From Rufibacter latericius (GTDB taxonomy: Bacteria; Bacteroidota; Bacteroidia; Cytophagales; Hymenobacteraceae), in assembly GCF_003721515.1 (NCBI RefSeq), contig NZ_RJJD01000001.1:124001-188000 (forward strand): a DNA stretch of 64,000 nucleotides. Direction: 5' to 3'. Positions 1,133 to 61,579 of this stretch are shown here, one piece after another (position 1 is the first letter of the stretch; the number at the start of each line of letters is the position of its first letter). A program made the translations under genes and the position numbers. A model generated the notes under the pieces. It searched no databases, was not told where the DNA came from, and saw nothing but the letters and a program-made list of their open reading frames with translations.

Positions 1133-1167
1133 GTTTATGGGGTACTTTCAAAAACTAGCCTTAAAAC
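1133..1167. repeat. dispersed intergenic palindrome, copy 1
   Basis: Member of a family with half-site close to GTTTTAGGCCTGTTTTC, a 2-4 nt centre, and the inverted half GAAAACAGGCCTAAAAC. Here the left half is GTTTATGGGGTACTTTC and the right half AAAAACTAGCCTTAAAAC. It lies between tRNA-Cys and the leader ORF. Confidence 0.6.
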
Positions 1168-1229
1168 AACCCTCCCCTACTCTTGGCCCTACTCCTTGCC
1201 GGAGGATCATCATTTTCCTTTTCATCTTG

Positions 1230-1300
1230 CGGTCACGGGCGGATTCGAACCGCCGTAAAAGACTTTGCTGGTCTTTGCTTTGCCTCTCAGCCACACGACC
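1230..1300 (-). tRNA. tRNA-Cys (anticodon GCA), atypical
   Basis: A full cloverleaf folds on the minus strand: acceptor GGTCGTG/CGTGACC (7 pairs, two of them G-U), D-stem GCT/AGC, anticodon stem AAGAC/GTCTT, T-arm GGCGG-TTCGAAT-CCGCC. The 7-nt anticodon loop is CAGCAAA, giving anticodon GCA (Cys). Two departures stand out: position 33 is A instead of the near-universal U, and the discriminator base is G rather than the U73 that cysteinyl-tRNA synthetase recognises. CCA is not encoded. It may be a decayed or specialised copy rather than the main tRNA-Cys. It sits about 300 bp upstream of the cysteine-run leader on the same strand. Confidence 0.75.
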
Positions 1301-1545
1301 TAATTCTTCTATTCCTGCTTCCTTCAGCATGCCCTGGAAGAAGCACTGCCTTTCTTTTTAGCAAACCTTTCCGGGAACAGAAGCTACATAGATACTCTTA
1401 ATCCCTATAGAACTAGTAGACAAATAGAAGATTTTAGATCGAGACAGCCAAATATTTACCTCTAAATTTTGATTATTTTTTTACTAATCCCTGATTTCCA
1501 GGCATTTTCACATCCACAAAGGCTTCCTGTTTTCAATTCCTTATC

Positions 1546-2913
1546 CTAAAAGGTGGCTGAAAACAGGAGATAATGCGCTAATCCAGCCATGGCACTGATG
1601 CCAATCCAGAGCATCATGCCCACTTTGAATCGGTACATGGCCAGAAAGGAAATCACCATCCACACCAAGGCAAAGTAATCTAAACGGCTAAGGGAAAGCC
1701 CCTCGGGGAAGAGTACCGCAACTCCAAAGTAGACGGTCAGATTCAGCACCACCCCTACTACGGCGGCGGTCACTACGCCCAGAATGGATTTGACGGCCGC
1801 ATTGCCACGGGTGCGTTCAATAAGGGGCGCTCCGGCCAGAATAAAGAAAAAGCAGGGCAAAAAAGTGTAGAAGGTGGTGGTAAACAGACCCAGCGCCCCC
1901 ATGGCCAGCGACCCGCCGTAATGGTTGAACCCCGCCATAAATCCTACAAACGTCAGTACCATGATGAGCGGACCAGGCGTGGTCTCGCCCAAGGCCAGTC
2001 CGTCTATCATCTGATAGCGTGAAAGCCACTCGAATTTCTCCACCGCCACCTGGGCTACGTATGGCAGCACCGCGTAGGCTCCGCCAAACGTCACCAGGGC
2101 GGCTTTGGTGAAAAAGGCCACCAGATGGCTCCAGAAGGGAAACTCGCGGGTGAATAGGTAGAACAGCCCAAGCGGCACCACCCATAGCAATAAGGTTACA
2201 CCCAACCGGAGCAGGCTTTTCCCCCAGGTGACCCCAGCGCCCACTACTTCACTGCCCGCATGCAGGTAATAGCTTTCTTCGTCTTCGGCCTGTTTTTGGG
2301 TGGCTTCTTTTTCCTGGAACAGGTTTGGGGTTAGTTTTCGCAAAACGATCGCTAAAACGATGGTGGCCAGAATAATCAGCGGAAAAGGTATCTTCAGAAA
2401 GAAAATGGCCACGAAACTGAGCACCGCCAGCAGGTAATGGAACCAAGTTTTCAGCGATTTGCCCGCAATCTTCAGAAGGGCCAGAGCCACAATGGCTACC
2501 ACCGCCGGTTTAAGGCCGTAAAACAGCGCTGCTACCCACGGAATGGTTCCGTAGCTCACGTACACAGAGCTCAAGCCCAGCAAAATGAACACAGAGGGCA
2601 GCACGAAGAAAATACCCGCCACTAAGCCGCCACGCACCCCGTGCATAAGCCAACCCAGGTACGTGGCCAATTGCTGGGCCTCGGGACCGGGCAACAGCAT
2701 GCAGTAGTTAAGCGCGTGCAGAAACCGGGAATCTGAGACCCAGCGTTTCTGCTCCACAATAAAGGTATGCATGATCCCGATTTGGCCCGCGGGCCCGCCG
2801 AAACTGATGAAACCCAGCTTCAGCCAGAATAGAAACGCTTCCCGGAAGGAAGGTTTCTCTGGCGCGGTTAGTCTTGTTTTCTGCGGAGGTGTGGCTAGCA
2901 TCTTTGTTTCCAT
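1546..2913 (-). CDS. chrA: chromate transporter ChrA, long-chain (two CHR domains)
   Basis: Inner-membrane carrier of the CHR family, which exports chromate and gives Cr(VI) resistance. The 455 residues contain two homologous halves. The first carries FGGPAGQIG (about residues 38-46) and LPGPEAQQLATYLGW (74-88); the second carries FGGAYAVLPYV (277-287) and LGETTPGPLIMVLTFVG (308-324). These repeated FGG and PGP signatures are typical of the family, and the length fits long-chain ChrA (about 400-450 residues). About 10-12 hydrophobic segments are visible, with a charged linker (EKEATQKQAEDEE) between halves. It is 58 bp downstream of the ChrB-domain regulator on the same strand, so the two are probably one transcription unit. 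The start ATG at 2913 fits the family N-terminus. Some CHR proteins may move other oxyanions, so chromate is inferred from family and neighbour. Confidence 0.95.
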   Translation of the reverse strand: METKMLATPPQKTRLTAPEKPSFREAFLFWLKLGFISFGGPAGQIGIMHTFIVEQKRWVSDSRFLHALNYCMLLPGPEAQQLATYLGWLMHGVRGGLVAGIFFVLPSVFILLGLSSVYVSYGTIPWVAALFYGLKPAVVAIVALALLKIAGKSLKTWFHYLLAVLSFVAIFFLKIPFPLIILATIVLAIVLRKLTPNLFQEKEATQKQAEDEESYYLHAGSEVVGAGVTWGKSLLRLGVTLLLWVVPLGLFYLFTREFPFWSHLVAFFTKAALVTFGGAYAVLPYVAQVAVEKFEWLSRYQMIDGLALGETTPGPLIMVLTFVGFMAGFNHYGGSLAMGALGLFTTTFYTFLPCFFFILAGAPLIERTRGNAAVKSILGVVTAAVVGVVLNLTVYFGVAVLFPEGLSLSRLDYFALVWMVISFLAMYRFKVGMMLWIGISAMAGLAHYLLFSATF

Positions 2914-2971
2914 AGTAATCCAGGTTTCAGCACAAGGATAAGGAACCTTGTATACGCAGGCTAGAACAGAG

Positions 2972-3835
2972 TTAACCTTTGGAACCTGGTTTACCTTTCC
3001 GTAAATTTTTCTGGTATTCCGAAGGGCTCTGGCCCATGTGCTGCCGGAAAATGCGGGTAAAATGGCTTTGGTCCGAGAAACCCGTGAGGTAAGCGACCTC
3101 GGCCAGGGTGTAGCCCGAGGTATGCAGCAGATTCAGGGCTTTCTCAATGCGCAGTTTCCGGATGTACTCCCCAAACGACAGATTATCGAAGTATTTGGAA
3201 AACGCCCGCGAAACGTAGGTGGGGTGCACATCCAGCGCCTCAGAGATTTCCTTCAGGTTCAAACTGAGGTTGGTGTCTATCTGGTCCTGGATGATCTCCT
3301 TCAGGTGCTGTGCCCAGGTGGGTACCTTCTGCGCCGATTCCTTTTTCTCTTGGAGGTAATTGGTATAGATCTCCAGGAAAAGCTGCTCGGTAGGGTGCGT
3401 GGTGTGTTTTTGCTTCTGCAGGTGCTTGGCCCAACTGTACAACCCGTCATACAGCACCATGGCCTTGTCCAGCAATTCGTGGTCATCGGTGATGTTGAAG
3501 GCCATGCCGTGCGAAATGGCCCACAGCCCCGCCGACTGGGCCGCCAGGGAATGGTCATCGGTATCTGCGCCGCGCACAATCATTGCCATGGTCTGCAGCG
3601 CCGGGTCCTGTAGATCGAATTTCTTCAGGAAGTAGTCAAAGGTGCAATGGTCCTGGTAATGCGAGTATTCTACCCCCGGAATATCGAACGGAACGGCATC
3701 CAGTTCCTTGGCTTTGTCCAGCACCTGGCGCTCGGGCACGTAGATGATTTCCGCAGTAGCGTCAATGAACCGACGAATAAGCCAGGGACAGGCCAGTCGG
3801 TCAATCTTTGGGCGCTCACGGGTAATCCATCTCAT
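2972..3835 (-). CDS. ChrB-type chromate-sensing domain fused to an AraC-family HTH
   Basis: Probable cytoplasmic transcription regulator of chrA. Residues 1-150 match the C-terminal part of chromate resistance protein ChrB (MRWITRERPKIDRLACPWLIRRFID, then HCTFDYFLKKF and IVRGADTDDH). In classical systems ChrB is the chromate-responsive regulator. Here that domain is followed at about residues 180-280 by an AraC/XylS DNA-binding domain with its two helix-turn-helix units (NLKEISEALDVHPTYVSRAF, then LAEVAYLTGFSDQSHFTRIF). The usual N-terminal half of ChrB is absent. The arrangement replaces the normal output of ChrB with an AraC head. It lies directly upstream of chrA, supporting local control. 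Both domain calls are secure from motifs; the ligand and mode of action are inferred. Confidence 0.88.
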   Translation of the reverse strand: MRWITRERPKIDRLACPWLIRRFIDATAEIIYVPERQVLDKAKELDAVPFDIPGVEYSHYQDHCTFDYFLKKFDLQDPALQTMAMIVRGADTDDHSLAAQSAGLWAISHGMAFNITDDHELLDKAMVLYDGLYSWAKHLQKQKHTTHPTEQLFLEIYTNYLQEKKESAQKVPTWAQHLKEIIQDQIDTNLSLNLKEISEALDVHPTYVSRAFSKYFDNLSFGEYIRKLRIEKALNLLHTSGYTLAEVAYLTGFSDQSHFTRIFRQHMGQSPSEYQKNLRKGKPGSKG

Positions 3836-3907
3836 GGAACTCTGGTTTTAAAAAAGTGACCTTCCACAAAGGAACGATCTTTTCATAAAGGTAAGGGTTC
3901 CCGCCTT

Positions 3908-3945
3908 CGTTTAGGAGCTTGTTTTCTGAAAAGGGGCTTAAAAGG
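3908..3945. repeat. dispersed intergenic palindrome, copy 2
   Basis: Left half GTTTAGGAGCTTGTTTTC, centre TN, right half GAAAAGGGGCTTAAAAG. It sits 70 bp upstream of the ChrB/AraC gene, in the divergent gap 3836-4221. Apart from this and the adjacent weaker copy I see no gene or clear promoter in that 386-bp gap. Confidence 0.65.
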
Positions 3946-3983
3946 GGTTTTCAGGATGATCTGTAAAAAACGGCCCTAAAACA
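3946..3983. repeat. dispersed intergenic palindrome, copy 3 (weak left half)
   Basis: Directly abuts copy 2. The right half AAAAAACGGCCCTAAAAC is clear; the left half, beginning GTTTTCAGGATGATC, is decayed. This is one of the few places where two copies lie in tandem. Confidence 0.45.
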
Positions 3984-4221
3984 GGACGCGGGAAAGGAAA
4001 AGCCAGTTTACCCGATGCCATGTGGTGGATTTTCACTTGGGGACCCTTTTTATTGCCAGACCCGATCTGAAAAAGTTGAAGGGGAAGCGCAAAATTACTA
4101 ACCGCCCGAACAAGCGTCCGTATAGGTACAAATTCGTTGCCTACCTGCACTTTACCGCAGTTTTCCGGGGTGGAGTCTTCCTTGAACCGTTCTTTTTCTA
4201 CGATACTCGAAACAAGTGACC

Positions 4222-11046: not shown

Positions 11047-11174
11047 GTAATTGGGGAACAAAGATAGGGCGGCGGAAAACGGATGTCCAGCAAATCTTGC
11101 TCGGCTTTAAATGGCTGGCTCCGGAAATTAAACTATTCAGAAATGAACGGGCCTATTTTATTTAAAACGGGGAA

Positions 11175-11213
11175 CGTTTGAAGCATATTTTCCGGAAAAC
11201 AGCTTAAAAACAG
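11175..11213. repeat. dispersed intergenic palindrome, copy 6
   Basis: CGTTTGAAGCATATTTTC / CG / GAAAACAGCTTAAAAAC, between the TcmP-like stop and the dehydrogenase start. A decayed half (CTTTAAATGGCTGGCTCC) is visible further left, near 11105. Confidence 0.6.
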
Positions 11214-13123: not shown

Positions 13124-15007
13124 ATGCCATTTCTGCTCGCTCAGCTTCTTTCCTCTGACTTCATACAGGCCCTCTGCTGGACCTTGGTGCACTCCTTATG
13201 GCAGGGCCTGGTGCTAGCCATTGCGGCGGGTCTGGTGGTGCAGTTGACGCGCAGATCGGCCCCGGCGCTACGGTACAATTTACTGGCGGGCTTGTTTGTG
13301 CTGTTTCTGGGGGCCAGCGGAGGCACGTTCTGGTATGAATGGGGACTGATTTCGCCCGCGGGCAATGGGTTTTCAGGGTCGCTGGAGGTATCGGTGTTGC
13401 CGGAGATTGGCGTTAATTCTTCCGGATTTCTGCGTTCGGGAAGCACGTCACTTTCCTTGACGCAGGCTTTCGCGGAGTTCTGCACGGCCCATGCCTCCAC
13501 CATTGTGCTGGTCTGGTTTCTGGTGTTTGCGCTGAAAAGCCTGCAGATCCTGAGCGGAATGCATTACGTGGTTCGGCTGAGGAAAGAGCAAACCAGCCCC
13601 GTTTCTGCTTTCTGGCTCGCCCGCATCACGGAACTGAGCCGGAGGTTGCAGATTGGTTTGCCGGTATCATTGCTGGAGTCTGGCCTGGTGAAAGTGCCGG
13701 CGGTCATTGGGTTTCTAAAGCCCTTGGTGCTGGTGCCCACGGGCATGCTGGCGCAGTTGCCGCCCGAGCAGGTGGAGGCCATTCTGCTGCACGAACTGGC
13801 CCACATCCGCCGCCGCGATTACCTGGTGAACTTGCTGCAAACAATGGCTGAGGTGCTGTTCTTCTTCAATCCGGGATTGCTGTGGCTCTCTGCCCGACTG
13901 CGGCAGGAACGTGAGAATTGCTGCGATGACCTGGCCATTCAGGCGCTGCAAAGCAAAACGAATTTCCTGCAGGCGCTGGTCACGTTCCAGGAATACAACC
14001 TCTCGCAATTTGGCTTGGCCCCGGGCTTCGCCGATAAACGCACCTCCCTCACTGACCGCGTGAAACGGATCATCTACCAGGACAACGTGCCGCTGCAACG
14101 CTCCGAGAAAGTGTTTGTAGGCTTTTGCCTGGTGCTCGTTTCGGGGCTGCTTTTGGGATTTGCGCGCCAAAACACTTCGGTTCTTTCAGAGCAACTGCCC
14201 CAGCAGGCCTTGGAGATTCTGCTTCCCAGAAAAACATCAGGAAACAGCCCGATAGTACATGTCCCCCAGAAATCCCCCGTTTTGGTAAAACCACGCCAAA
14301 AACTGGCAGGCAAACCCGTCGCGCAGAAAACCCAACCAGTCCAGACTACACCCAAAGAACTGAATGTATCCGGGGCGGCCCATAAGTCCTCCGATGGGGT
14401 GATCCAGAGATACGACTTCGAGCGGAACGGCGTGGTGTATGAAATTGAGAGAGACAGCGTGGATATTCTTGCTTTGAAGATCAACGGTGAAAAGGTTAGT
14501 GCGCAGGAAGTGCAACGCTACAAAAACCTGATGCAGAACCTTCTACAGCAGTATGAGCAGGGCGCACTCAAGATTGTGGTGAACGGGATTGTGCCGGAGG
14601 TGGAAACGGAACCTACATACCTGATTCCGGTGGGTTTTATCAAAAACGGCACCATCACCACTACCCAAAACGGCACCGAGTATGTGGTGAAAGTGAAAAA
14701 CCACAAAACGGTACAGTTCCTGATCAACGAAGAAATTGTAGCCGATCACCAGCTTCCCTCCCACACTTCTCTGATCCAGGCCTTGGTGAAGGAAGCCGAA
14801 GCCGACCGGGTATACGCGGAATTATCAGCCAAAGCCGCCGAGCAGTTGCGCTATCCCTCGGTCAGCCCAGACGCCGAGATGCTGCCCGGCTCTAAGTTTG
14901 AACCCCAGGAATACCATTACACCTACTTGCCCAAATCCAGAGCAAACCAATACCAGGCCCGCACCCAAACCTACCAGGAAAGAACCCAGCAACCACCTAC
15001 CATCTAG
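13124..15007 (+). CDS. M56 family (BlaR1-like) membrane metallopeptidase
   Basis: Inner-membrane zinc peptidase and probable signal transducer acting on the upstream BlaI-type repressor. Hydrophobic segments fill the first 140 residues. The zinc motif HELAH lies at 223-227 in HELAHIRRRDYLVNLLQ, followed by the family motif RQERENCCDDLAI that supplies the third ligand. A further transmembrane helix (KVFVGFCLVLVSGLLLGFA) comes near residue 330, and then about 280 residues of periplasmic, proline- and lysine-rich sequence. This C-terminal part is not a penicillin-binding sensor as in classical BlaR1, so the stimulus is probably different. Translation is likely coupled to blaI (15-bp gap). Length 627 is at the long end for the family. 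Confidence 0.9.
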   Translation: MPFLLAQLLSSDFIQALCWTLVHSLWQGLVLAIAAGLVVQLTRRSAPALRYNLLAGLFVLFLGASGGTFWYEWGLISPAGNGFSGSLEVSVLPEIGVNSSGFLRSGSTSLSLTQAFAEFCTAHASTIVLVWFLVFALKSLQILSGMHYVVRLRKEQTSPVSAFWLARITELSRRLQIGLPVSLLESGLVKVPAVIGFLKPLVLVPTGMLAQLPPEQVEAILLHELAHIRRRDYLVNLLQTMAEVLFFFNPGLLWLSARLRQERENCCDDLAIQALQSKTNFLQALVTFQEYNLSQFGLAPGFADKRTSLTDRVKRIIYQDNVPLQRSEKVFVGFCLVLVSGLLLGFARQNTSVLSEQLPQQALEILLPRKTSGNSPIVHVPQKSPVLVKPRQKLAGKPVAQKTQPVQTTPKELNVSGAAHKSSDGVIQRYDFERNGVVYEIERDSVDILALKINGEKVSAQEVQRYKNLMQNLLQQYEQGALKIVVNGIVPEVETEPTYLIPVGFIKNGTITTTQNGTEYVVKVKNHKTVQFLINEEIVADHQLPSHTSLIQALVKEAEADRVYAELSAKAAEQLRYPSVSPDAEMLPGSKFEPQEYHYTYLPKSRANQYQARTQTYQERTQQPPTI

Positions 15008-17676: not shown

Positions 17677-17716
17677 ACTTTGGATTTAGGTCCCACAGGA
17701 AAACGGAGGCAGATAA

Positions 17717-17750
17717 CGTTTTAGGCCTTATTTGAGGAAAACGGTCTTAT
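17717..17750. repeat. dispersed intergenic palindrome, copy 8, overlapping a stop codon
   Basis: CGTTTTAGGCCTTATTTG / AG / GAAAACGGTCTTAT. The right half encodes the last residues (KTVFLK-stop) of the Gfo/Idh/MocA gene. A second decayed copy (TTTAGGTCCCACAGG / AAAACGGAGG) precedes it at 17683-17710. Confidence 0.55.
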
Positions 17751-18816
17751 TTGACTTCGCCGATTCTTTGGCGGCCTCCAGAATTTCCACCACCTTCACG
17801 TTGAGGGGCAGACCGTACAGATCATTTTGGTCCAAGGTCAGTTTACCGGTTACCACCGAGGCCAGCACCGAGAAAGGATCCAGAAAGGGCTCCGGCCGAG
17901 GGTCCAATTTCAAAGATTCTTCGGGTGAACTATCATTTAGCCGCTGCCGCACGGTAGTGGCATCTACCGCGACGGCGTACCCTTTGGTACCGAACACCTC
18001 CATGTCTTTGCGCGGGAAGGTCCAGTTCCAGGAACCCTGGATGATGCACTGGGCTTTGGGGTACTGCAGAATGATAGAGGCTTCGTCGTCTACGTTTTTG
18101 TAGATTTCGGGCTTGTTCTGCCGGGTGACCGCCGTTACCGAGAGCGGCCGTTCGCCCTTCATGAGCCAGCTCATCAGGTTAGCGCCGTAGCAGCCGAAAT
18201 CGGTCAGGGCTCCCGCCCCGTTCTTCACCGGATCCGTCAGGATTTCCAGGAATTCCGGGCTTACCCCTATTTCCTTGGGTCCCTGGTGCCCATCGTTTAC
18301 CATCACTTTCCGGATTTCGCCCAGTTTTCCTTCGTTATACAGACCAGCTACGTGCTGGTTGCTGGCGTACCAGGAGGTTTCGAAGTTGGTGAGCACGTGA
18401 ATGGCGTGCTTTTGGGCCAAGGCCTGGATTTCCTTTGCATCTGCCAGCGTGGTGGCGAGCGGTTTCTCTACCATCACGTGGATTTTCCGGGGGGCACACG
18501 CCCGCACCACGGATATGTGCTCGTTCGTGGCCCCAAACGCCGACACCGCCTGTGGTTTTACCTTGTCCAGCATTTTGGCAAGGTCATTATAAAAAAGTTT
18601 CGGGCTCAGCTTGTAGCGTTTGGTGTACCGCTCCACCAAAACCGGGTTCGGTTCGTAAATGCCCACCACCAGGATGTCCTGCTTGCCCGGCCGGTTAAAA
18701 ACCCAGTCTACGTGCCCGTGGCTCAAACCCGCTATCGCCAACCGAATCGGTGACTGGGCAGAGGCTTGGGTTAAAGACATCAGACTTAAAAGAAAAAGGA
18801 GTAAAAACGTTTTCAT
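17728..18816 (-). CDS. Gfo/Idh/MocA family oxidoreductase, exported
   Basis: NAD(P)-dependent sugar or polyol oxidoreductase fold. From the ATG at 18816 the protein is 362 residues and begins with a signal peptide (MKTFLLLFLLSLMSLTQASAQ), so it is probably periplasmic. The Rossmann start IRLAIAGLSHGHVDWVFNRPG has GLSHGH where classic members have GxGxxG, and the catalytic EKP motif is intact (HVMVEKPLATTLADAKEIQAL). The C-terminal sheet domain follows (DFGCYGANLMSWLM). A longer start at 18861 would place 15 polar residues before the signal peptide and is rejected. It is the last gene of the minus-strand fucose/rhamnose-type cluster and may act on the same sugar. The substrate is not evident. 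Confidence 0.85.
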   Translation of the reverse strand: MKTFLLLFLLSLMSLTQASAQSPIRLAIAGLSHGHVDWVFNRPGKQDILVVGIYEPNPVLVERYTKRYKLSPKLFYNDLAKMLDKVKPQAVSAFGATNEHISVVRACAPRKIHVMVEKPLATTLADAKEIQALAQKHAIHVLTNFETSWYASNQHVAGLYNEGKLGEIRKVMVNDGHQGPKEIGVSPEFLEILTDPVKNGAGALTDFGCYGANLMSWLMKGERPLSVTAVTRQNKPEIYKNVDDEASIILQYPKAQCIIQGSWNWTFPRKDMEVFGTKGYAVAVDATTVRQRLNDSSPEESLKLDPRPEPFLDPFSVLASVVTGKLTLDQNDLYGLPLNVKVVEILEAAKESAKSNKTVFLK

Positions 18817-21423: not shown

Positions 21424-21466
21424 AAACTATGATCAAGTTAAGATGGGAAAGGGGTAAGTTCTATTT

Positions 21467-21505
21467 CGTTTAGGACCTGTTTTCCTGAAAACGGCTCTAA
21501 AACAG
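21467..21505. repeat. dispersed intergenic palindrome, copy 10
   Basis: GTTTAGGACCTGTTTTC / CT / GAAAACGGCTCTAAAAC, one of the best-preserved copies. It fills most of the 83-bp gap between the SDR stop and the FAH start, inside a predicted operon. Confidence 0.75.
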
Positions 21506-22302: not shown

Positions 22303-22338
22303 GTTTCGGGGCTGTTTTGCTTAAAACAGCCCCGAAAC
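22303..22338. repeat. dispersed intergenic palindrome, copy 11 (perfect)
   Basis: Exact 16-bp arms GTTTCGGGGCTGTTTT and AAAACAGCCCCGAAAC around a GCTT loop, 32 bp upstream of the SDR start. This is the reference copy of the family. It could also act as a weak terminator for the TonB receptor transcript, though no clear U-tract follows. Confidence 0.85.
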
Positions 22339-22396: not shown

Positions 22397-24817
22397 TTAG
22401 AAGTTTGCCCGCAGAGAAACGCCGTACGTGGCAGGATTTCCTAAGCGAGTTGCCCCGAAGTTGTAAGCATAGTCAATGTAGGTTTCATCGGTGAGGTTTC
22501 TGCCCCACAGGAAAGCCTCGAACCGTTTGGTCTGTACGCCGGCCCGCGCGTTGAACACGCTGAATCCGTCTTGTGAAAGTTGGTTGGCCAGGTCAAAGTA
22601 CTGCTTGCCCAGGTAGCGCCACTCGCCTCGCAGCACCAGCCTCAGGTTCTGAGAATTGCCCAGACTATGGCCATATTGCAAGGCCAGCATGGAGGTGATA
22701 TTTGGGGTAAAAATCTGCTTGTTTCCGTTCAGGTTCACTTCCTCGCCGTCATTGGTGCCCGTTAAGCGGGTGTACTTGGCATCTGTGTAACCGAAGCTAT
22801 AGCTGGTCTCCAGACCTTTCAACGGGGTGGCGTTCAGTTCCAATTCAACTCCTTTGCTCTCCAATTCGCCCACGTTGCGGGTGATGATGAGCGCCTCGGG
22901 CAAAACCAGGGTGGGCACCTGGGCATCGGTTACCTGGGTGTAGAACGCTGACACATTAGCCGTTACTCGGTTTTGCAGAAAAGCCGTTTTCAGCCCGATT
23001 TCATAATTGTTGCTGTATTCCGGGTCATAGGCGAATAAAGGCGGCTGCGACGGATCTGAGGAAAGCTGCGTGATGCCGCCCGTCCGGAAACCGCGGCTGT
23101 AGGATCCGTACAGATGCACGTCATCGGTGAGGTGGTATGCCAAACTGGCCTTGGGCGAGAAAGCCTTGAAACTAGCTTTTGAGGAGGTATCGGAACGCAC
23201 GACCATGAGCTCATCGCCGTCAGGCTGAAACTCACCGCGGATGGTTTGTTTCCGGTGTTCGTAGTCATAGCGCAGACCGGCGGTAAATTCCAGGTTAGGA
23301 AGCACCCGGTACGTTCCCTGCCCAAAGAAAGCGGTTCCGTAATTCTGTCCTTCGTTGATGTTGATGCTGGTGAAAAAAGGAAAAGGAGCGCCCATCATTT
23401 CCGCGTCTTTCCCGAAGTGCGTACCCTGTTTCACCGGATTATCATGGAAGAACCCGTACGCGCCCGCAACCCATTGCAGTTTAGAAATGGAGGAAGCCGG
23501 TGAGGAGAACCTGATTTCCTGAGTCAACACCTTCACTTTGTTCCATTCTCCGCCCAAAAATTTTATCTCTTGGTTGAAGAACTTTAAATTCTTCCTTTCA
23601 TTCCCATAGTCATTCACAATGGAAACCCCGTCAATTGGGGAAAAATCACCGTCCAAGGGTTGGTCATAAACGCGGTAATTTGATTGATAAGCCGTCTGGG
23701 AAGTGAAGTTGAAACCGCTTCCGGTATGGTTCACAATGAAGGAGCCATTGAAGGTGTTGTCAATCATTTTGCCCACGGCATTCTGGTTTACCTCAAACGG
23801 ATGCGCCAAGGCTTCTTCCAGGCTGGAGGCCAGCGGGAAAGCGCCATGGTTTCGGTTCTGGCTGTGCTTGGCATTGAGCGTAAGGCTCCAGGAGGGGTTT
23901 ACCAGGTATTTGAGGTAGTAATTACCCGCGAATACGCGCTGACGGTCAAAATCTGAGTTGTCATAGGTGTTGGTATAGAACCCGTCTTGTTTCCGAAACA
24001 TACCAGATACTCCCAGAAACAGCTTGTCCTGCACCAAAGGAGCCCTGAATCCCAGGCTGTAGCGTTGCTGCCCGTAGTTTCCGAAGTCAAGGGAGGCAAA
24101 ACCGCCCGGGGTGTTGCTTGGCTGTCTGGTAATGATGTTGATGACTCCGCCCATGGCGTTGCGGCCGTACAAAGTGCCCTGCGGGCCGCGCAGCACTTCA
24201 ATGCGTTCTACATCCAGCAGTTCAGGCAGATAGGTGTCCAGGGTGAATTGGTTTACCCCGTCAATGTAAGTAGCCACCGCCGGGTCATACGACGTGGTGG
24301 CAATGCCCCTGATGGAGGTCAGGTTTCGGTTGTCGCCGGGATCAGAGGAATAAAGGTTGGGGATAATGGTGGAGATGTCGCGGGTGTTCCAGAGGCGGTA
24401 CTCCTGCACCTGTTTGCTGGTGAGGGCGGTAATGCTGGCGGGCACCCGTTGCAGGTCTTCCTCTACTTTCTGGGAACTTACCACCACTTCGTCCAGGCGA
24501 GCCGCCGATTCAGTTAGTTGGAAGATTATATCGGTTTCATTCTGGGGTAGGCGCACGGTTTGGGTTGAGGTGGCGAACCCCACGGCGCTCACCTGCATTC
24601 TGTAATTCCCCGAGGGAACATTGTTGAAAAGGAACTGTCCCTGGGCATCGGTGACGGCGCTTTGGTTTGTATTCAATAACCTGACGTTAGCCCCGGGGAT
24701 TCCTGCTGCATTTCGGTCCTGAACTTTCCCCCGCAGGGAACTCACCTGTTGGCTGTGCCCTAAGGAGATGGTGAAAACAAATAAAAGGATAAGGGAAAAA
24801 AGTACTTTACTTCTCAT
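22397..24817 (-). CDS. TonB-dependent receptor
   Basis: Outer-membrane receptor of 806 residues with all expected parts: signal peptide (MRSKVLFSLILLFVFTISLGHSQ), carboxypeptidase-regulatory-like domain (SLRGKVQDRNAAGIPGANVRLLNTNQSAVTDAQGQF), TonB-box-like LDEVVVSSQKVEEDLQRVP, plug motifs (VPASITALTSKQ, RGPQGTLYGRNAMGGVINIITRQP), and a barrel ending in GVSLRANF with a terminal Phe. No SusD partner follows; the plug resembles classical siderophore-style receptors. Its place at the head of the deoxysugar cluster suggests uptake of the sugar or a small glycoside, with the MFS carrier upstream doing inner-membrane transport. That role is inferred from position. Confidence 0.92.
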   Translation of the reverse strand: MRSKVLFSLILLFVFTISLGHSQQVSSLRGKVQDRNAAGIPGANVRLLNTNQSAVTDAQGQFLFNNVPSGNYRMQVSAVGFATSTQTVRLPQNETDIIFQLTESAARLDEVVVSSQKVEEDLQRVPASITALTSKQVQEYRLWNTRDISTIIPNLYSSDPGDNRNLTSIRGIATTSYDPAVATYIDGVNQFTLDTYLPELLDVERIEVLRGPQGTLYGRNAMGGVINIITRQPSNTPGGFASLDFGNYGQQRYSLGFRAPLVQDKLFLGVSGMFRKQDGFYTNTYDNSDFDRQRVFAGNYYLKYLVNPSWSLTLNAKHSQNRNHGAFPLASSLEEALAHPFEVNQNAVGKMIDNTFNGSFIVNHTGSGFNFTSQTAYQSNYRVYDQPLDGDFSPIDGVSIVNDYGNERKNLKFFNQEIKFLGGEWNKVKVLTQEIRFSSPASSISKLQWVAGAYGFFHDNPVKQGTHFGKDAEMMGAPFPFFTSININEGQNYGTAFFGQGTYRVLPNLEFTAGLRYDYEHRKQTIRGEFQPDGDELMVVRSDTSSKASFKAFSPKASLAYHLTDDVHLYGSYSRGFRTGGITQLSSDPSQPPLFAYDPEYSNNYEIGLKTAFLQNRVTANVSAFYTQVTDAQVPTLVLPEALIITRNVGELESKGVELELNATPLKGLETSYSFGYTDAKYTRLTGTNDGEEVNLNGNKQIFTPNITSMLALQYGHSLGNSQNLRLVLRGEWRYLGKQYFDLANQLSQDGFSVFNARAGVQTKRFEAFLWGRNLTDETYIDYAYNFGATRLGNPATYGVSLRANF

Positions 24818-33924: not shown

Positions 33925-33970
33925 TTTCTGATTTAAGGCTGGTTTTCAGAAAACTGCCTTAAATCAGAAA
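33925..33970. repeat. dispersed intergenic palindrome, copy 15 (long, nearly perfect)
   Basis: Arms TTTCTGATTTAAGGCTGG and its complement pair over about 21 of 23 bases around TTTTCAGAAAA, the longest copy in the window. It ends about 50 bp past the DUF1080 stop and could serve as its transcript-end hairpin. Confidence 0.75.
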
Positions 33971-38753: not shown

Positions 38754-39112
38754 TGATTTATGCTGTGGTGGCACAAAAGGGAGTTTGAACTTGGAAGTAA
38801 ACCGCAGAGAACGTTTAAGGCTCACGTAGACCTCCTTCTCTGGCATTTTACAATTTTAAAATTAAACCTTAATTATAGAGCTAAGTCTTGAATAATAAAA
38901 GGTTTTAGCTATACTTTCTTTTATTATCGTCAAAATGAAGGCTTTGCCTAAACCTGAACAAACCTCTGAAAGCAACGCTGAAACAAGAGCACTAAGGCTA
39001 TTTGCCATACTCTTTGATGGGCTGTTTGAAGATAGAAGCAGGTTTGTTAGAAAGGTTTAGTAACAGGGTATTTATGAATTGAATCATCGCTCCGAATTCA
39101 GAAACGAACTCT

Positions 39113-39148
39113 GTTTTGGGGCTCCTTTCCTGATTCTGGCCTTAAAAC
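39113..39148. repeat. dispersed intergenic palindrome, copy 17
   Basis: GTTTTGGGGCTCCTTTC / CT / GATTCTGGCCTTAAAAC. It lies in the 483-bp gap 38754-39236, between the two-component genes and the DUF1080 operon. The A/T-rich part at 38850-38935 probably holds the operon promoter, but I could not fix its boxes. Confidence 0.6.
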
Positions 39149-39236
39149 GGATTACCTGGCTAGCCAGGCACCAGGTGAATTGAAGTCCTCAGGATGGTAA
39201 AATCATCTTACTTGACAATAGAATGGAAGTAAATGG

Positions 39237-44205: not shown

Positions 44206-44290
44206 CAGAGAGAGAGGGATTCGAACCCCCGGACCCGCAAAGGTCAACGGTTTTCAAGACCGCCGCAATCGACCACTCTGCCATCTCTCT
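44206..44290 (-). tRNA. tRNA-Ser (anticodon UGA)
   Basis: 85-nt class II tRNA. Acceptor AGAGAGA/TCTCTCT pairs perfectly, the anticodon loop CTTGAAA gives UGA (Ser), and there is a long variable arm with TTGACCTTTGCGGGTCC and a T-arm GGGGG-TTCGAAT-CCCTC. The discriminator is G, as expected for Ser. CCA is not encoded. The first base is A, where most homologues have G; the pair A1-U72 keeps the stem intact. Confidence 0.95.
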
Positions 44291-44511: not shown

Positions 44512-44513
44512 GG

Positions 44514-51016: not shown

Positions 51017-54000
51017 TTAGAAAGTGAAGCGAAGGTTAACGCCGAAATTGCGCACCGATGGCGGAGAGTTAAACTCGAACCCCCGGGTGTTGGCCCCCAA
51101 CTGGTTAGACTCTGGGTCGGCGTGCGGCAGGTTAGGCGCATAGTACAGCAGGTTTCGGCCAGTAAGGGTAACACTTGCCGCTTTAAACGGGGTCTTGGCA
51201 AGCAGCGCGGCGGGCAAGGTATACCCCAGGCTTACTTCGCGCAACCGTAGAACCGAGGCATCAAAGACGGCAAACTCAGAGGCATTGTTGAACGTGGTCC
51301 AATACTGCTGCGCCGTAATCTGAATGTTGTTAGGCGTAGTAGTAGGTTCCCCTGCCTCATTGGCCAACACACCCTCAAACATGTAAGGCTGCTCCCGGTT
51401 TTCGGCTGTTTCCTCTAAAACACCCCGGAAACGCGCAATCTGGGTTTGTCTTGAATAGAAGTCACCGCCGTGTACGTACTGCACCATGGCACTTAAACTA
51501 AACCCTTTGAAGGAGATTGTATTAGACAGACTACCCCACCAGTCGGCGTTGGGGTCGCCTATGATCTCCGAGTTGGTGTTTACCACAGGCAAGCCGTTCG
51601 TAGGGTCAATGATCAGTTGACCAGCCTCGTTTCTTCTGAACCTGGTGCCCTGTAGAACCCCAAATGGCTGGCCTGGCTGTAGCAGCGGGCTCAAACCCGA
51701 GAACCCAGACCCGCTACTTCCGGTAAGCGGATCAATATACCCGGTGGTAAGATTGAACTGATCCAACCCGGGGGCAAGTTCTACTACCTCGGTTTCCAGC
51801 GCCGTGAAATTTGCCCCAATGTCCCACCGGAACCCGGTTTCAAACTCCAACGGCGTAGCATTGGCCGATATCTCCCAACCTTTGTTGTCAATCCTACCGG
51901 CATTGGTGGTAAAATCGGTGAACCCGGTAGAGCTAGGCACCGTCAAACTCAGGATCTGATCAGTGGTGCTGTTATTAAAGTAATTGACGTCCAGGGTACC
52001 CCTACCATTGAAGAAAGTAAACTCAGCCCCTATCTCGTAGGATTTCTTAGACTCAGGCTTCAGGTCCAGGTTTCCGCGACGGTCATTGCGGGTGAAGGCT
52101 ACCGTATTTCCATTGAAAGGGAATGTAAGCCCCGCTACGTTGTTCCCGAAGGCCTGGGTAACAAAAAAAGTGTTGGTCAGGTAAGGATCGGTGTCATTCC
52201 CCACCTGGGCGTAACTGGCCCGAATTTTTCCATAGCTAAAGATGTCATTGCTGATACCTAAAGCATCTGTGAAGACGAATCCAAGGCTGACCGATGGATA
52301 GAAATAGCTGTTGTTAGCAGTTGGCAAGGTAGATGACCAGTCGTTCCGGGCCGTGAACTCGGCAAACAACAGGTTTTTGTAGTTTAGGCCTACTTGCCCG
52401 TAAACACCCACTAAACGCCTTTCGGTTTGGTAGTTGGTGGCAAACGTGGTAGAAGGCAAGTGGTTGGCCAGGTTATAAAAGTCCGGCACCAGCAGATCCT
52501 CGGCCTGAATGGAGTTGCGCCTGGTTTCAATCATGTTGATTTGGGTTCCCACCAGGGCCCTGAAATTGAAATCAGGGGTAAGGTCTTTTTGGTAGACCCC
52601 AAACAAATCATGGTTCACTGACAGAAACCGGTTGTCTTCATAAAGCTGAGACCCGCGCTGGTTGGTGGCGGTGTTCCCGTTTGAGTTGAAGGAACCATAC
52701 CCATAGGCCTGCAAGCGGTCATCAGAGTACTGGTCCATGCCTATCCGGTAGGTGGCCGTGAAGTCTTTGAAGAAGGTTGGGGTATAGTTGAGCGTGGCGC
52801 TTACAATGGACCGGTTCACCTCACTGTCATAGAAAGACTCGTTGACACTCCACATAGGGTTATCGCGGTTGAGTTGGGTAAACAGTGTAGGGGCCTGCAC
52901 CCCTGGCCGCAATTTGTAAGGCACATTTACTATGTCAAAGCTTCTGGGGATGAAGGGCAGCGTGAACCAAGGGCTGGATCCGGAGTTTCCCTGCAGGGAT
53001 CCTTCCTGGTTGGTCTTGGCGTACAGCACAGAAGCATCTACAGAGAAGCCGTGCCCCAGGGTTGCATTGCCCGCCGCCCGAAGGGTGTACCGGTCCAGTC
53101 CGCTTTCAGGGATAATTCCGTCCTGATTGGTGGTATTGACGCTGAAGATATAGCGCATTTTCTCACTCCCGCTGGAAAGCGTAATTCCGTTGTCCCAGAT
53201 TTTACCTGTCTGGAAGAAGTCTTTCACGTTGTCTGGATAAGCCCGATAAGCGAGCCTGGTCATGGGGTTCCCGCTCACGTTGTTTACAGAGTCAAGCCCA
53301 GGAGTCCCGAAACGAGGTCCCCAACTGTCAGTGGAAGCCAGATTGTACCGCCCGTTAGTTCCTTGCCCGTAGTCGTTCTGGTAATTTGGCAAACCATAAA
53401 CTCTCTGCATGTTGAAGGAAGAGGTCAAGGTTATTTCCACATCGCCAGACCGGCCCCGTTTAGTGGTAATGATCACGGCCCCGTTCCCTGCCCTGGCCCC
53501 ATATAAGGCGGCGGCGGCAGGCCCTTTGAGCACGGTCATAGATTCAATGTCATTGGGGTGAATATCCAGGGCCCGGTTTGAATAAGAGGCCCCTCCCGTG
53601 GTTGGGTTAGAGGAGTAAGAGGTATTGTTGCTGATGGGCACCCCGTCTACCACGAAAAGCGGTTGGTTATTACCAGTAGCGGAAGAAAGCCCCCGAATGA
53701 ACACTTGGGCCCCTGCTCCAGGCATCCCGCTGGAGGAAATAATCTCTACCCCAGCCACTTTTCCCTGGAGGGCATTCACTACGTTTGGTTCAGACTTCTG
53801 GGCAACCTGGTCACCCTTTAAATCCTGCACCGCGTAGTTCACTTCTCTTTTCTGGCGCTCAATACCCACCGCCGTTACCACCACCTCACTCAGTTGCTCT
53901 GAGTCTTCGACCAAAGTCACGTTGATGGTGGTCTGGTCGCCAATGGGAACTTCGCGGTTCAGGTAACCAATGTAAGTAAACACCAACGTTCCGCCGGCCG

Positions 54001-54196: not shown

Positions 54197-55170
54197 AACG
54201 AGAATTGATTTTGAATGTGTTTGGTGAACAGGTGCCTTCCTGCTGGAATAAGCCAAAGGCATTTTCATCGTTAAGAGCTGATTTTCATCTTACCGAGGGT
54301 GTGATAAACGTCCCTAACCGGAGATGATGCTTATGGCTTAGAGAGACAAAGCCAGGGGGAAGGTGATAATTTCTGCTTGGGTGTAAAACCGTTTCGGGGC
54401 TTTTTCCCAGAACAGATTTCTACCACAAGAGACTGAAGGAAGAGTGGATTGAGCATGCCTTACCATGCCCTTCGTTGATTTTTGGTGCGGGAAAGCCGTC
54501 TTTTCTGAAAACAGGAGTTGACCAAGACCCAAGGTATAAGATCTGTGGCTTCAACTGCCTTTCTGCAACGTTGCGGCTTGTTGTTCTTTGTAGTTTAGAA
54601 GAATGTTTTTCTATTCCGTTTCAAGAACCACCATTTTTTGGTTGTTTCTACACAAGGGAAGAGATCAGCCTATCGCCTCTACTTCTAGCCTTGCGTCTAT
54701 CTCGGTCCAAAGCGTTGCCTTTCTCAATAGGCAACCTAAGCAGAGTAGCAATCAGTAATTTAGCAAAATTTTATCCTTAATTAACATATCTACCTTTTAT
54801 ATATTTTCTGAATAAAATATGCTAAAAAAATACCTCAGGCACTCGCTTCCATTTAAAGACAATACCAAAAGTGAAAAGCTGCATGCTTTTTAAAAATTTT
54901 CTACTAAAAGCAGATTCCTCATTTCAGGGCGCGAAATGGAACCATAGGAAAGGCCTCTTTTGGGTTGGAATGCATCTGAAAACTTGTTTTCTGGAGAAGG
55001 GAACCTTCCCCAAGGGTTTAAATGAATTGAAAGGGATGGGATTGGTAAAACGGCAGAAATTAACCTAAGATACCGGTCATTCTACCCGGTCCGCACGGGT
55101 GACTTTAGAGGGAAATCTAGTTCCTCTTGCTTCAAATAAAATCTAATCTTCTAACTCTGCCTTACTGGCT
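54197..55170. other. large intergenic region upstream of susC
   Basis: About 1 kb without a supportable gene. ORFs of 101 and 65 codons on the plus strand show no family features. It contains decayed palindrome copies at about 54391 (GTTTCGGGGCTTTTTCCC) and 54484-54520 (AAAGCCGTCTTTTCTGAAAACAGG) and a very A/T-rich block at 54770-54860 that could hold the susC promoter; exact boxes are not clear. Confidence 0.5.
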
Positions 55171-55249: not shown

Positions 55250-55284
55250 GACTTAGGACTCAGGACTTAAGACCTAAGACTCTG
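55250..55284. repeat. heptamer repeat array at a gene end (copy B)
   Basis: Five exact 7-bp steps: GACTTAG, GACTCAG, GACTTAA, GACCTAA, GACTCTG. The array overlaps the acyltransferase stop codon (55274-55276) and encodes its last residues Glu-Ser. Confidence 0.6.
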
Positions 55285-56394: not shown

Positions 56395-56412
56395 AAAAAT
56401 CAAGTTAGGAAT

Positions 56413-57441: not shown

Positions 57442-57547
57442 TAATCATCAACCCCTTTGTACGGTTGATTTACTGAAAGGCAAAAGTACAGGCAGAAAGT
57501 TCTGGTTTCGCGCCGCTTGCCCGTTACCTCCATGATACCACCCCCTG

Positions 57548-57585
57548 CGTTTTACCCCCGTTTTCTTGAAAGCAGCCGCAAAGCG
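57548..57585. repeat. dispersed intergenic palindrome, copy 26
   Basis: CGTTTTACCCCCGTTTTC / TT / GAAAGCAGCCGCAAAGCG. It lies in the divergent gap 57442-57943; nothing else definable is seen there apart from A/T-rich sequence that probably holds the WbqC-gene promoter. Confidence 0.6.
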
Positions 57586-57943
57586 CCTTGCGTTCCCTGC
57601 ACCTGATTCAGAACAAAATTCCCGGAACTTCCTGCCACCGGCGTCTTGTTTCTTACAGGCTGGTAAACAAGGAAAAACTAAGAAGGTAAATATTTGGCGC
57701 TTAACCCTTAACAGAGATACTACATTTATCCTTTAGCCGTTCTTCCCTTATCTGCATCAGGAGAAATAAGTACGCAAAAGTCCAATTTATAATAAGTGAA
57801 AGAATTTGGGCTAAGGCGGTTTTTGAAGAGTCTGTTTAGGTTTAATGCCTTTTGCATAGACCAGGTTTCCTCAAGGTCACGAATGGTTTCCGTGCAAGTC
57901 TCCGAAATTTCCCTTACTTGCACTTATTCAACTTTCTTCTTGC

Positions 57944-58561: not shown

Positions 58562-58657
58562 ACATTTGCCCCAAGCATTTTGTTAATTTTACAAGTGTCG
58601 CCTTGGCAGCACAGTTGCAGTACACGCACAACAACAATTTACTAGACAAGAACTTAC

Positions 58658-61264: not shown

Positions 61265-61282
61265 TTGAATTCATTCCATTTG

Positions 61283-61317
61283 AAAAGGCTGACAGACAAA
61301 CTGTCAGCCTTTTTTTT
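61283..61317 (+). terminator. Rho-independent terminator of clpC
   Basis: 13-bp arms AAAAGGCTGACAG and CTGTCAGCCTTTT around ACAAA, then a T-run (61309-61317). It starts 18 bp after the clpC stop. Confidence 0.95.
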
Positions 61318-61354
61318 GTTTTAGGGCTCATTCCCAAAAACGCACTTAAAAACG
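61318..61354. repeat. dispersed intergenic palindrome, copy 27
   Basis: GTTTTAGGGCTCATTCCC / AAAAACGCACTTAAAAACG, starting at the last T of the clpC terminator. Confidence 0.6.
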
Positions 61355-61361
61355 CAGATCA

Positions 61362-61544
61362 GAAACTGTAGCGTCATGTCCCTGTCATGACGTGTCTTAA
61401 TGAAACGGGAAAATCTCATCTAAGAACAAACTAAAAATCCTGGAAAAAAAAGAAGGTACCAGTTGCAATGCCAGATTCTTTCTGAATTGTAACGGGATTG
61501 TTGCATAGAACCACCTCTTGCCAAGGTCACGACGCTACAGTTTC
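61362..61544. mobile_element. MITE-like element with 23-bp terminal inverted repeats
   Basis: GAAACTGTAGCGTC at 61362-61375 is exactly complementary to GACGCTACAGTTTC at 61531-61544, and the match continues to 23 bp with three mismatches. The 183-bp element carries no ORF. An internal hairpin (CGTCATG...CATGACG) sits next to the left end. No clear target-site duplication is visible. It is flanked on both sides by copies of the dispersed palindrome. The 482-bp gap 61265-61746 holds nothing else but a probable promoter close to the next gene. Confidence 0.5.
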
Positions 61545-61579
61545 GTTTTCGGCTTTCTTTTCAGAATTGAGGCCGAAAT
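61544..61579. repeat. dispersed intergenic palindrome, copy 28
   Basis: CGTTTTCGGCTTTCTTTTC / AG / AATTGAGGCCGAAAT, abutting the right end of the MITE-like element. Confidence 0.55.

What the first reader, a model, noticed from the sequence alone, without database searches (positions are those of the whole stretch)
1133..61579. Dispersed 36-bp palindrome family in most intergenic gaps
About 29 recognisable copies of one palindrome (half-site near GTTTTAGGCCTGTTTTC, then a short centre and its inverse) occur across 64 kb, nearly all between genes. Copy 22303-22338 is perfect (16-bp arms) and 33925-33970 nearly so; most others have drifted separately in the two halves, so compensatory change is not obvious. 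Many lie 18-55 bp upstream of start codons (18816, 22271, 28733, 34816, 45853, 46623), or touch stop codons (17728, 42539, 44514), and some sit inside predicted operons (21467, 34834). They do not code and are too irregularly spaced to be CRISPR. Possible roles: REP/BIME-like element moved by an RAYT-type transposase, mRNA stability hairpin, or binding site for a global DNA-binding protein. I know of no described family with this consensus.
Basis: seen in the sequence. Interest (0 to 1): 0.8.

Follow-up and report, generated by a model that had tools for sequence, protein, structure and literature searches.

The report
Genus-wide palindromic DNA sites with dialects
Bacteria of the Rufibacter group carry hundreds to thousands of copies of one 40-base palindrome, mostly between genes, many of which stay at the same chromosomal places from species to species while their shared spelling changes together, as expected of DNA marks read by a protein rather than of jumping repeats.

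Summary
A 40-nt profile trained on the window finds 265 copies in 400 kb of the same genome, against 7-10 in Markov controls. A pattern with up to 3 mismatches gives 254-1984 matches in 16 of 16 genus genomes, 0-4 in 14 other genomes of the family, 0 in controls. The motif is four T/A-tracts in a dyad (18-4-18); lone half-sites are hardly enriched.
Many copies are inherited in place: 55% of tandem-gap tests find a counterpart within 8 bp in the orthologous gap, against 9% in non-orthologous gaps, while four-fold sites are only 50-67% identical between the relatives measured. Each species has its own spelling ('dialect'), and shared sites follow it.
No RNA signature appears: G-U 749, A-C 739 mismatches, no overall strand asymmetry, in 494 oriented sites. 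A minority form strong hairpins.
Best reading: duplex-DNA recognition sites of an unidentified dimeric protein, kept in place and changed in concert. Chromosome organisation or a DNA-uptake-like self mark are both open. A RAYT-driven REP family is not favoured, though Y1_Tnp loci are modestly enriched. Nine searches of a limited library listed no description.

The parts
1130..1169 (.). palindromic site, intergenic
   Evidence: 18.5 bits
1527..1566 (.). palindromic site over the stop end of called gene 1546-2901
   Evidence: 25.4 bits
2321..2360 (.). palindromic site inside called gene 1546-2901
   Evidence: 21.7 bits; retained in G063, the one relative tested
3907..3946 (.). palindromic site, intergenic (first of an abutting pair)
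   Evidence: 31.1 bits
3945..3984 (.). palindromic site, intergenic (second of the pair)
   Evidence: 31.8 bits
5726..5765 (.). palindromic site, intergenic
   Evidence: 24.5 bits
7763..7802 (.). palindromic site, intergenic, convergent gap
   Evidence: 34.9 bits
7984..8023 (.). palindromic site, intergenic, same convergent gap
   Evidence: 32.9 bits
8438..8477 (.). palindromic site inside called gene 8074-11046
   Evidence: 26.9 bits; retained in 3 of 3 relatives tested
11174..11213 (.). palindromic site, intergenic
   Evidence: 37.5 bits
12090..12129 (.). palindromic site inside called gene 11252-12388
   Evidence: 25.3 bits
12470..12509 (.). palindromic site, intergenic
   Evidence: 36.0 bits
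14136..14175 (.). palindromic site inside called gene 13124-15007
   Evidence: 23.2 bits; retained in G063, the one relative tested
14266..14305 (.). weak palindromic site inside called gene 13124-15007
   Evidence: 15.4 bits
14621..14660 (.). weak palindromic site inside called gene 13124-15007
   Evidence: 15.9 bits
17527..17566 (.). palindromic site inside the end of called gene 15149-17620
   Evidence: 25.3 bits; retained in 2 of 2 relatives tested
17716..17755 (.). palindromic site over the stop end of called gene 17728-18780
   Evidence: 23.6 bits
18847..18886 (.). palindromic site, intergenic
   Evidence: 30.7 bits; same offset in G042, not in G051 or G037
21466..21505 (.). palindromic site, intergenic within a same-strand run
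   Evidence: 40.5 bits
22301..22340 (.). palindromic site, intergenic; perfect 16-nt arms at 22303-22338
   Evidence: 36.5 bits; sequence
22984..23023 (.). weak palindromic site inside called gene 22397-24817
   Evidence: 16.6 bits
24919..24958 (.). palindromic site, intergenic; offsets 98-101 in the window and in 4 of 4 relatives compared
   Evidence: 35.0 bits
26435..26474 (.). palindromic site, intergenic
   Evidence: 19.6 bits
26690..26729 (.). palindromic site inside called gene 26510-27565
   Evidence: 18.4 bits
28786..28825 (.). palindromic site, intergenic; offset 52 in the window and in 3 of 3 relatives compared
   Evidence: 32.8 bits
29402..29441 (.). palindromic site inside called gene 28846-30135
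   Evidence: 20.8 bits; retained in 3 of 3 relatives tested
32184..32223 (.). weak palindromic site inside called gene 30191-33571
   Evidence: 16.7 bits
33786..33825 (.). palindromic site, intergenic
   Evidence: 33.3 bits
33928..33967 (.). palindromic site, intergenic, nearly perfect stem
   Evidence: 38.0 bits
34832..34871 (.). palindromic site in a 70-bp gap between same-strand genes
   Evidence: 27.2 bits; listed in 2 of 5 relatives compared
39111..39150 (.). palindromic site, intergenic
   Evidence: 32.7 bits
40750..40789 (.). palindromic site inside called gene 39919-40956
   Evidence: 18.6 bits
42506..42545 (.). palindromic site over the stop end of called gene 41211-42539
   Evidence: 25.5 bits
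44474..44513 (.). palindromic site, intergenic, touching the stop end of gene 44514-45443
   Evidence: 40.9 bits
45886..45925 (.). palindromic site, intergenic; offset differs by 1 in G006
   Evidence: 28.3 bits
46650..46689 (.). palindromic site, intergenic; offset differs by 2 in G006
   Evidence: 26.4 bits
47897..47936 (.). palindromic site, divergent gap
   Evidence: 36.7 bits
48765..48804 (.). palindromic site, convergent gap
   Evidence: 31.1 bits
51395..51434 (.). palindromic site inside called gene 51017-54085
   Evidence: 30.6 bits; retained in G006, the one relative tested
52379..52418 (.). palindromic site inside called gene 51017-54085
   Evidence: 18.8 bits; weaker (12.3) in G006
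54389..54428 (.). palindromic site, intergenic
   Evidence: 17.6 bits
55169..55208 (.). palindromic site, intergenic
   Evidence: 19.5 bits
56195..56234 (.). palindromic site at the edge of gene 55274-56209
   Evidence: 31.3 bits; counterpart 6 bp off in G006
57547..57586 (.). palindromic site, divergent gap; offset differs by 1 in G006
   Evidence: 33.6 bits
59418..59457 (.). palindromic site inside called gene 58658-61264
   Evidence: 21.2 bits
61316..61355 (.). palindromic site, intergenic
   Evidence: 28.6 bits
61543..61582 (.). palindromic site, intergenic
   Evidence: 28.0 bits

Best explanation
Each palindrome is a recognition site in double-stranded DNA for a sequence-specific, two-fold symmetric DNA-binding protein (a dimer or dimer of dimers). 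Each half would span about 18 bp and touch two T/A-tracts about one helical turn apart; the halves meet across a fixed 4-bp centre. The network of hundreds to thousands of sites, found in 16 of 16 genomes of the genus that were searched, is largely inherited in place, often just beyond gene ends, and when the protein's preference shifts in a lineage the sites follow (dialects). Shown: the motif, the near-fixed dyad spacing, lone half-sites at or barely above control, genus restriction, place conservation of about half of the sites, dialects at shared places, absence of an RNA-type constraint. Inferred: that a protein reads it, its symmetry, and the job. My first choice is a chromosome-organising or insulating protein acting at the borders of transcription units; a DNA-uptake-like self mark is the main rival for the job. 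A minority of sites near stops have been extended into hairpins that probably also serve as terminators.
For: Excess over controls in an independent 400 kb and in 16 of 16 genus genomes. Dyad spacing: 149 pairs at 4, 22 at 3, 5 at 5 in the own genome, nearly always 4 in three others; lone halves at >=14 bits 3 vs 2, 2 vs 3 and 3 vs 1 control in G012, G022, G060, and 41 vs 20 in the own genome. Arms of the bulk hardly covary; GU 749 vs AC 739 (p 0.82) and no overall strand asymmetry (chi2 155.8, 166 df, p 0.70) in 494 tandem-gap sites of 11 genomes. Kept in place: 108 of 203 site-by-relative tests have a counterpart vs 3 in reversed sequence, at 50-67% four-fold-site identity; within 8 bp: tandem 761 of 1389 vs 9% in non-orthologous gaps, convergent 105 of 228 vs 9%, divergent 63 of 187 vs 2%. 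Concerted change: at shared positions, found without using those columns (counted from 0), column 6 is A in 80% of arms in G045 and 0-18% in the ten others, column 7 is T in 100% in G022 and 9-85% elsewhere, column 14 is A in 56% in G048 and 9-24% elsewhere. 146 of 235 gaps >=60 bp are occupied vs 93 expected.
Against: No protein was identified. Information content (22-45 bits) is far above what locating a few thousand sites needs, which hints at a homogenising drive. A third to a half of sites have no counterpart in a given relative, so whole sites are gained or lost. Some copies are more alike than column shuffling predicts: strongly in G012, G022, G060, slightly in the own genome (29.2 vs 28.8 of 40, sd 0.07). 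Y1_Tnp loci are modestly enriched in sites (2.27 vs 1.78 per 3.2 kb, P 0.007). Arms covary weakly in several genomes, and mirrored unique flanks occur in 2-23% of sites, which a plain binding site does not explain. 83 of 291 (>=14 bits) or 60 of 302 (>=18 bits) own-genome sites lie in called genes, and divergent gaps hold 0.57 per gap, so the gene-border role is not exclusive. One search's position-specific identities are conditioned on both sites being found; one search's own-dialect scores use profiles trained on the same sites.
Confidence: 0.45

Rival explanations
1. A palindromic DNA-uptake or self-DNA sequence: fragments carrying the site are preferentially taken up or recombined, so a better-matching site spreads within a species at its own locus. 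This drive would keep positions, homogenise spelling genome-wide and create species dialects, as in Neisseriaceae DUS.
For: Copy number, lineage restriction, species dialects and placement near gene ends resemble published DUS behaviour (PMC3630211, passages seen: eight dialects, about 1900 to 5918 copies per genome, inverted pairs at terminators). In-place dialect change. Information content beyond per-site need. More even spacing than random intergenic placement (CV 0.90 vs 1.31). comEC (PF03772) in 16 of 16 genomes.
Against: DUS are 10-12-mers that also occur singly; here lone half-sites are at most weakly enriched. comEC is widespread (10 of 14 control genomes). Coding sites show no significant tendency to lie far from other sites. 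I know of no tested natural competence in Rufibacter (recalled, not searched).
Confidence: 0.25
2. A REP/BIME-like mobile palindrome family, spread by a RAYT or another transposase, now drifting in the own genome and more recently active in others.
For: Mostly intergenic, near 3' ends, as described for REPs (PMC3733652, passages). Copies alike beyond column shuffling, strongly in G012, G022, G060. Y1_Tnp in 15 of 16 genus genomes; 30 Y1_Tnp loci hold 2.27 sites per 3.2 kb against 1.78 around genes of similar size (287 genes, balanced by genome; P 0.007). A third to a half of sites are unshared in a given pair of genomes.
Against: About half of the sites are shared by position across the genus. 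Dialects change at shared places, and shared and unshared sites do not differ in own-dialect score in a consistent direction. No empty site in the one set tested. No tag flanking the core in the own genome. G017 has no Y1_Tnp at E<=0.001 but has the sites.
Confidence: 0.15
3. RNA hairpins: intrinsic terminators or mRNA stability elements with a genus-specific core.
For: Sites often lie near stops. Strong hairpins (MFE below -20) in 29% of 56 convergent, 14% of 118 tandem and 3% of 32 divergent sites of the own genome; TTTT follows 45% of 33 strong against 13% of 84 weak ones. Unique mirrored flanks, several followed by T-runs. In G012, G022 and G060 most tandem sites fold below -15.
Against: Little arm covariation in the bulk, no GU over AC excess and no overall strand asymmetry, fixed 4-nt centre of variable sequence, sites in divergent gaps kept in place and inside genes. 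In G060 strong hairpins are not followed by TTTT more often than weak ones.
Confidence: 0.1
4. Palindromes maintained and homogenised by DNA repair or replication template switching at cruciforms (quasi-palindrome correction), without a reader protein.
For: Mirrored flanks of 6-16 bp, counted from the outermost core base, above the null in each of 11 genomes, though by a single site in G006 and G032; some nearly perfect stems.
Against: Template switching perfects each palindrome from itself; it does not give the loci of a genome the same dialect nor hold the T-tracts. Most copies in the own genome are imperfect.
Confidence: 0.05

Closest known systems
Neisseriaceae DNA uptake sequence (DUS) dialects (PMC3630211, passages seen)
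   Same: Thousands of copies, lineage-restricted, species dialects with an invariant core, intergenic copies near terminators.
   Different: DUS is a 10-12-mer found singly as well as paired; here a 40-bp dyad whose halves are hardly found alone, depleted in coding DNA, in Bacteroidota. Uptake function untested.
REP elements, GTAG and CGTC super-families (PMC3733652, passages seen)
   Same: Small palindromes, high copy, mostly in convergent and unidirectional gaps near 3' ends; CGTC REPs are reported in Bacteroidetes without a dedicated transposase.
   Different: No terminal tag seen in the own genome, no overall asymmetry relative to transcription, about half of the sites inherited in place across the genus with dialect change, arms hardly covarying in the own genome.
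Chromosome-organising dyad sites such as parS, matS or nucleoid-occlusion sites (recalled, no call)
   Same: Dyad DNA sites read by a dimeric protein and spread over the chromosome.
   Different: Those are tens to a few hundred short sites; here 254-1984 pattern matches per genome, extrapolated to some 3,500 sites including weak ones in the own genome, 40 bp long, with species dialects.
Intrinsic terminators
   Same: A minority of sites form strong stems, some followed by T-runs near stops.
   Different: Terminators have no shared core sequence (recalled); the bulk here lacks stem constraint.

Membership tests
REP/BIME (RAYT-associated) | Short palindrome in high copy, mostly extragenic | tested here: met
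REP/BIME (RAYT-associated) | GTAG or CGTC tag at one end, asymmetric unit | tested here: not met
   Own genome only: symmetrised flank columns carry 0.05 bits or less
REP/BIME (RAYT-associated) | RAYT gene present and flanked by the repeat | tested here: inconclusive
   Y1_Tnp in 15 of 16 genomes, none in G017; 28 of 30 loci hold a site, 2.27 against 1.78 per 3.2 kb in controls, P 0.007
REP/BIME (RAYT-associated) | Insertion at new places (empty sites in relatives) | tested here: inconclusive
   No joined-flank alignment beat the filled one in syntenic gaps of 6 genomes; small sample, distant relatives; many sites are unshared
DNA uptake sequence (DUS/USS) | Species dialects, many copies, conserved core | tested here: met
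DNA uptake sequence (DUS/USS) | Single copies abundant, also in coding DNA | tested here: not met
   Lone halves at control level in three genomes, weakly above in the fourth; coding sites 6 of 70, 5 of 43, 1 of 53 in three genomes, 83 of 291 in the own
DNA uptake sequence (DUS/USS) | Raises DNA uptake or transformation | not testable with these tools
   experiment needed
Intrinsic terminator | GC-rich stem followed by U-run at 3' ends | tested here: not met
   Met only by a minority
RNA structural element | Compensatory change and GU tolerance on the transcribed strand | tested here: not met
   weak covariation in G012, G022, G060
Rfam family | Match over gathering score | tested here: not met
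   Only two tRNAs in the window
Protein-binding dyad | Bound by a cognate protein | not testable with these tools
   no protein identified

The most novel reading that the evidence does not exclude
A palindromic self-DNA or uptake-type signal in Bacteroidota: thousands of 18-4-18 dyads, largely fixed in place over the whole genus, whose spelling is driven to a species-specific dialect by biased uptake and recombination with a co-evolving receptor, acting as a barrier between species.
Probability: 0.25. Interest if true: 0.9.

Novelty: new variant of a known kind. Interest (0 to 1): 0.72.

Why it matters
Dispersed bacterial palindromes are usually explained as mobile or RNA elements. Here about half of a family is held at orthologous places over a divergence at which four-fold degenerate sites are only 50-67% identical, while its consensus is rewritten in concert in each species. 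That is either thousands of binding sites co-evolving with one protein or a genome-wide drive, and the dialects make it testable by swapping sites between species.

Tried and rejected
Mobile-element reading: searched Y1_Tnp in the own genome and the genus, site density at Y1_Tnp loci (with matched controls), empty sites, near-identical copies. The density (P 0.007) and the near-identical copies speak for it and are kept as evidence against my reading. After I moved its odds from 0.13 to 0.15 and my own from 0.47 to 0.45.

RNA reading: covariation, flank pairing, GU versus AC, folding, Rfam. A minority of hairpin/terminator-like sites remains.

Sister genera: 80 loci around one conserved gene: 13 and 12 sites at >=14 bits in Rufibacter hautae and Sabulibacter ruber; of the other 78, 72 have none and 6 have one, against 8 of those 78 with one in the reversed control. 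Palindromes of other sequence were seen in other genera.

Spacing-driven placement of coding sites: no significant signal. A first attempt at cross-dialect synteny found no shared gene pairs outside the own clade and was replaced by the recA-eno region. Diagnostic-column numbers are halved by a coding slip; use.

Literature: (nine searches of an open-licence library, no preprints) gave listings only; by titles and abstract starts none is on this family or on palindromes in Rufibacter. I read passages of two papers, not their whole text.

Full report
WHAT IS THERE. A 40-nt dyad with four T/A-tracts (GTTTT-six variable-GTTTT-4-nt centre-AAAAC-six-AAAAC) occurs 47 times at >=14 bits in the window; 29 midpoints are intergenic and 18 in called genes. 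In 400 kb of another contig of the same genome the window-trained profile gives 265 copies at >=12 bits, against 7-10 in Markov controls and 9 in the reversed sequence. Information sits in the tracts; the bases between are loose. At 6.1 per 10 kb the own genome would hold about 3,500 copies at >=14 bits (extrapolated). A fixed pattern with up to 3 mismatches counts 795 in the own genome, 254-1984 in the 16 genus genomes, 0-4 in 14 genomes of other genera of the family, and 0 for the reversed pattern in all 30.

WHO HAS IT. A sequence-only model saturates its scored candidates in 16 of 16 genus genomes of 120 family genomes searched; 38 of the other 104 have 1-8 matches at E<=0.1.

SHAPE. The halves meet at a near-fixed spacing: 149 pairs at 4, 22 at 3 and 5 at 5 in the own genome; nearly always 4 in three others. 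Lone half-sites at >=14 bits are at control level in three genomes (3 vs 2, 2 vs 3, 3 vs 1) and weakly above it in the own genome (41 vs 20). Within a copy 10.7 of 20 positions pair, against 10.5 between arms of different copies, with z about 3 at three outer columns and a tail of near-perfect stems. Oriented by transcription, 494 tandem-gap sites of 11 genomes show 749 G-U and 739 A-C mismatches (p 0.82), and no column asymmetry in total (p 0.70; one column at p 0.002 in one group). This is what a duplex-DNA site would show, not an RNA stem. Arms do covary weakly in other genomes.

WHERE. In the own genome convergent gaps hold 2.9 per kb (1.08 per gap), tandem 2.2 (0.58), divergent 1.5 (0.57). 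Tandem sites are nearer the upstream stop in 85 of 118; in G012 27 of 35, G022 17 of 17, G060 16 of 31. 146 of 235 gaps of 60 bp or more are occupied against 93 under random intergenic placement. 83 of 291 own-genome sites fall in called genes with lower scores, against 6 of 70, 5 of 43 and 1 of 53 elsewhere. Twelve site-by-relative tests of 7 coding sites of the window were all retained at >=10 bits, T-tract columns 98% identical against 85% for the rest and 81% for random stretches of the same genes (small, codon position not controlled; the other coding sites gave no row in that call).

KEPT IN PLACE. Against five syntenic relatives, four-fold sites are only 50-67% identical, yet 108 of 203 tests find a counterpart of >=10 bits within 15 bp, against 3 in reversed sequence. 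Over 11 genomes, mainly in the recA-eno region, 1129 of 1819 tests have one within 20 bp against 2. With the stricter control of non-orthologous gaps of the same class and similar length: tandem 761 of 1389 against 9%, convergent 105 of 228 against 9%, divergent 63 of 187 against 2%. Tests are made in both directions and share sites, so they are not independent. Four-fold identity was measured only in the own clade. The rest of the sites are unshared in a given pair, so whole sites are also gained or lost.

DIALECTS. Consensus left halves differ by species, for example GTTTTTGGCCTGTTTTC (G022), GTTTAGGGGCTGTTTTT (G045), GTTTTCGGCCTCATTTC (G048); information ranges from 22 bits (G006) to 45 bits (G022). 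With the diagnostic columns (counted from 0) ignored when finding sites, shared sites still carry their own genome's letters: column 6 is A in 80% of arms in G045, 0-18% in the ten others; column 7 is T in 100% in G022, 85% in G017, 9-44% elsewhere; column 14 is A in 56% in G048, 9-24% elsewhere. So shared sites changed in place and in concert. In most pairs a site scores better with its own dialect (profiles trained on the same sites), though G000 sites against G012 do so in only 6 of 12.

MOBILITY. Against: one Y1_Tnp gene in the own genome, 15 of 16 genus genomes with 1-6, none in G017, whose sites are well formed; no empty site in a small test. For: copies alike beyond column shuffling in G012, G022 and G060, and slightly in the own genome; 30 Y1_Tnp loci hold 68 sites, 2.27 per 3.2 kb, against 1.78 around genes of 150-250 aa in the regions held (P 0.007), with 2 of 30 loci empty. 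Isolated single genes flanked by long gaps could explain this modest excess; not tested.

HAIRPIN MINORITY. Strong stems are commoner in convergent and tandem gaps and are followed by TTTT in 45% of 33, against 13% of 84 weak ones, in the own genome; the contrast is absent in G060. Mirrored unique flanks of 6 bp or more, counted from the outermost core base, occur in 2-23% of sites, above the null in each of 11 genomes, by a single site in G006 and G032. I read these as sites built into terminators; how the mirrored flanks arise is unexplained.

MECHANISM. Shown: dyad without RNA signature, about half kept in place, changed in concert. Inferred: a protein reads it. Two jobs fit, chromosome organisation or insulation at transcription-unit borders, and a DUS-like self mark. 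The high information content favours some drive; the near-fixed dyad and the scarcity of lone halves favour a dimeric chromosomal protein. The 28 top-scoring sites of G012 shown in the capped list do not depart from uniformity along its chromosome, so no origin or terminus role is indicated.

PRIOR ART. Rfam gives only tRNAs in the window. Nine searches of an open-licence library listed no paper that by title or abstract start is on this family. The nearest published phenomena seen are DUS dialects (PMC3630211, passages) and GTAG/CGTC REPs (PMC3733652, passages).

Noticed in passing
L050, L055, L056, L061, L068, L070, L072 (Mucilaginibacter): Another palindrome family, near CAAAAGCAAAGC...GCTTTGCTTTTG, among the top palindromes of the seven Mucilaginibacter loci scanned together.
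   Followed up: no
L025-L030, L036, L041, L063, L065 (Pontibacter): Several of the 21 Pontibacter palindromes share AGGCAGGCCT-like arms, a different sequence in the sister genus.
   Followed up: no
11 genus genomes, e.g. G045 recA-eno region (L215-L219): Sites with perfectly mirrored unique flanks (runs up to 16 bp from the core edge), not always followed by a T-run; origin unexplained.
   Followed up: partly
L113, L114, L115: Y1_Tnp matches vary from 0 to 6 per genus genome; three (in G054, G060, G048) match nearly the whole domain at above 90 bits and may be a different, IS200-like subgroup (the label is recalled).
   Followed up: no
window 2972-3835 (-): Protein with a ChrB C-terminal domain followed by an AraC-type helix-turn-helix.
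   Followed up: no
window 30191-33571 (-): 1126-aa protein joining ThuA, GSDH, PKD and cytochrome c domains.
   Followed up: no
window 1230-1300 and 44206-44290 (-): Two tRNA genes.
   Followed up: no
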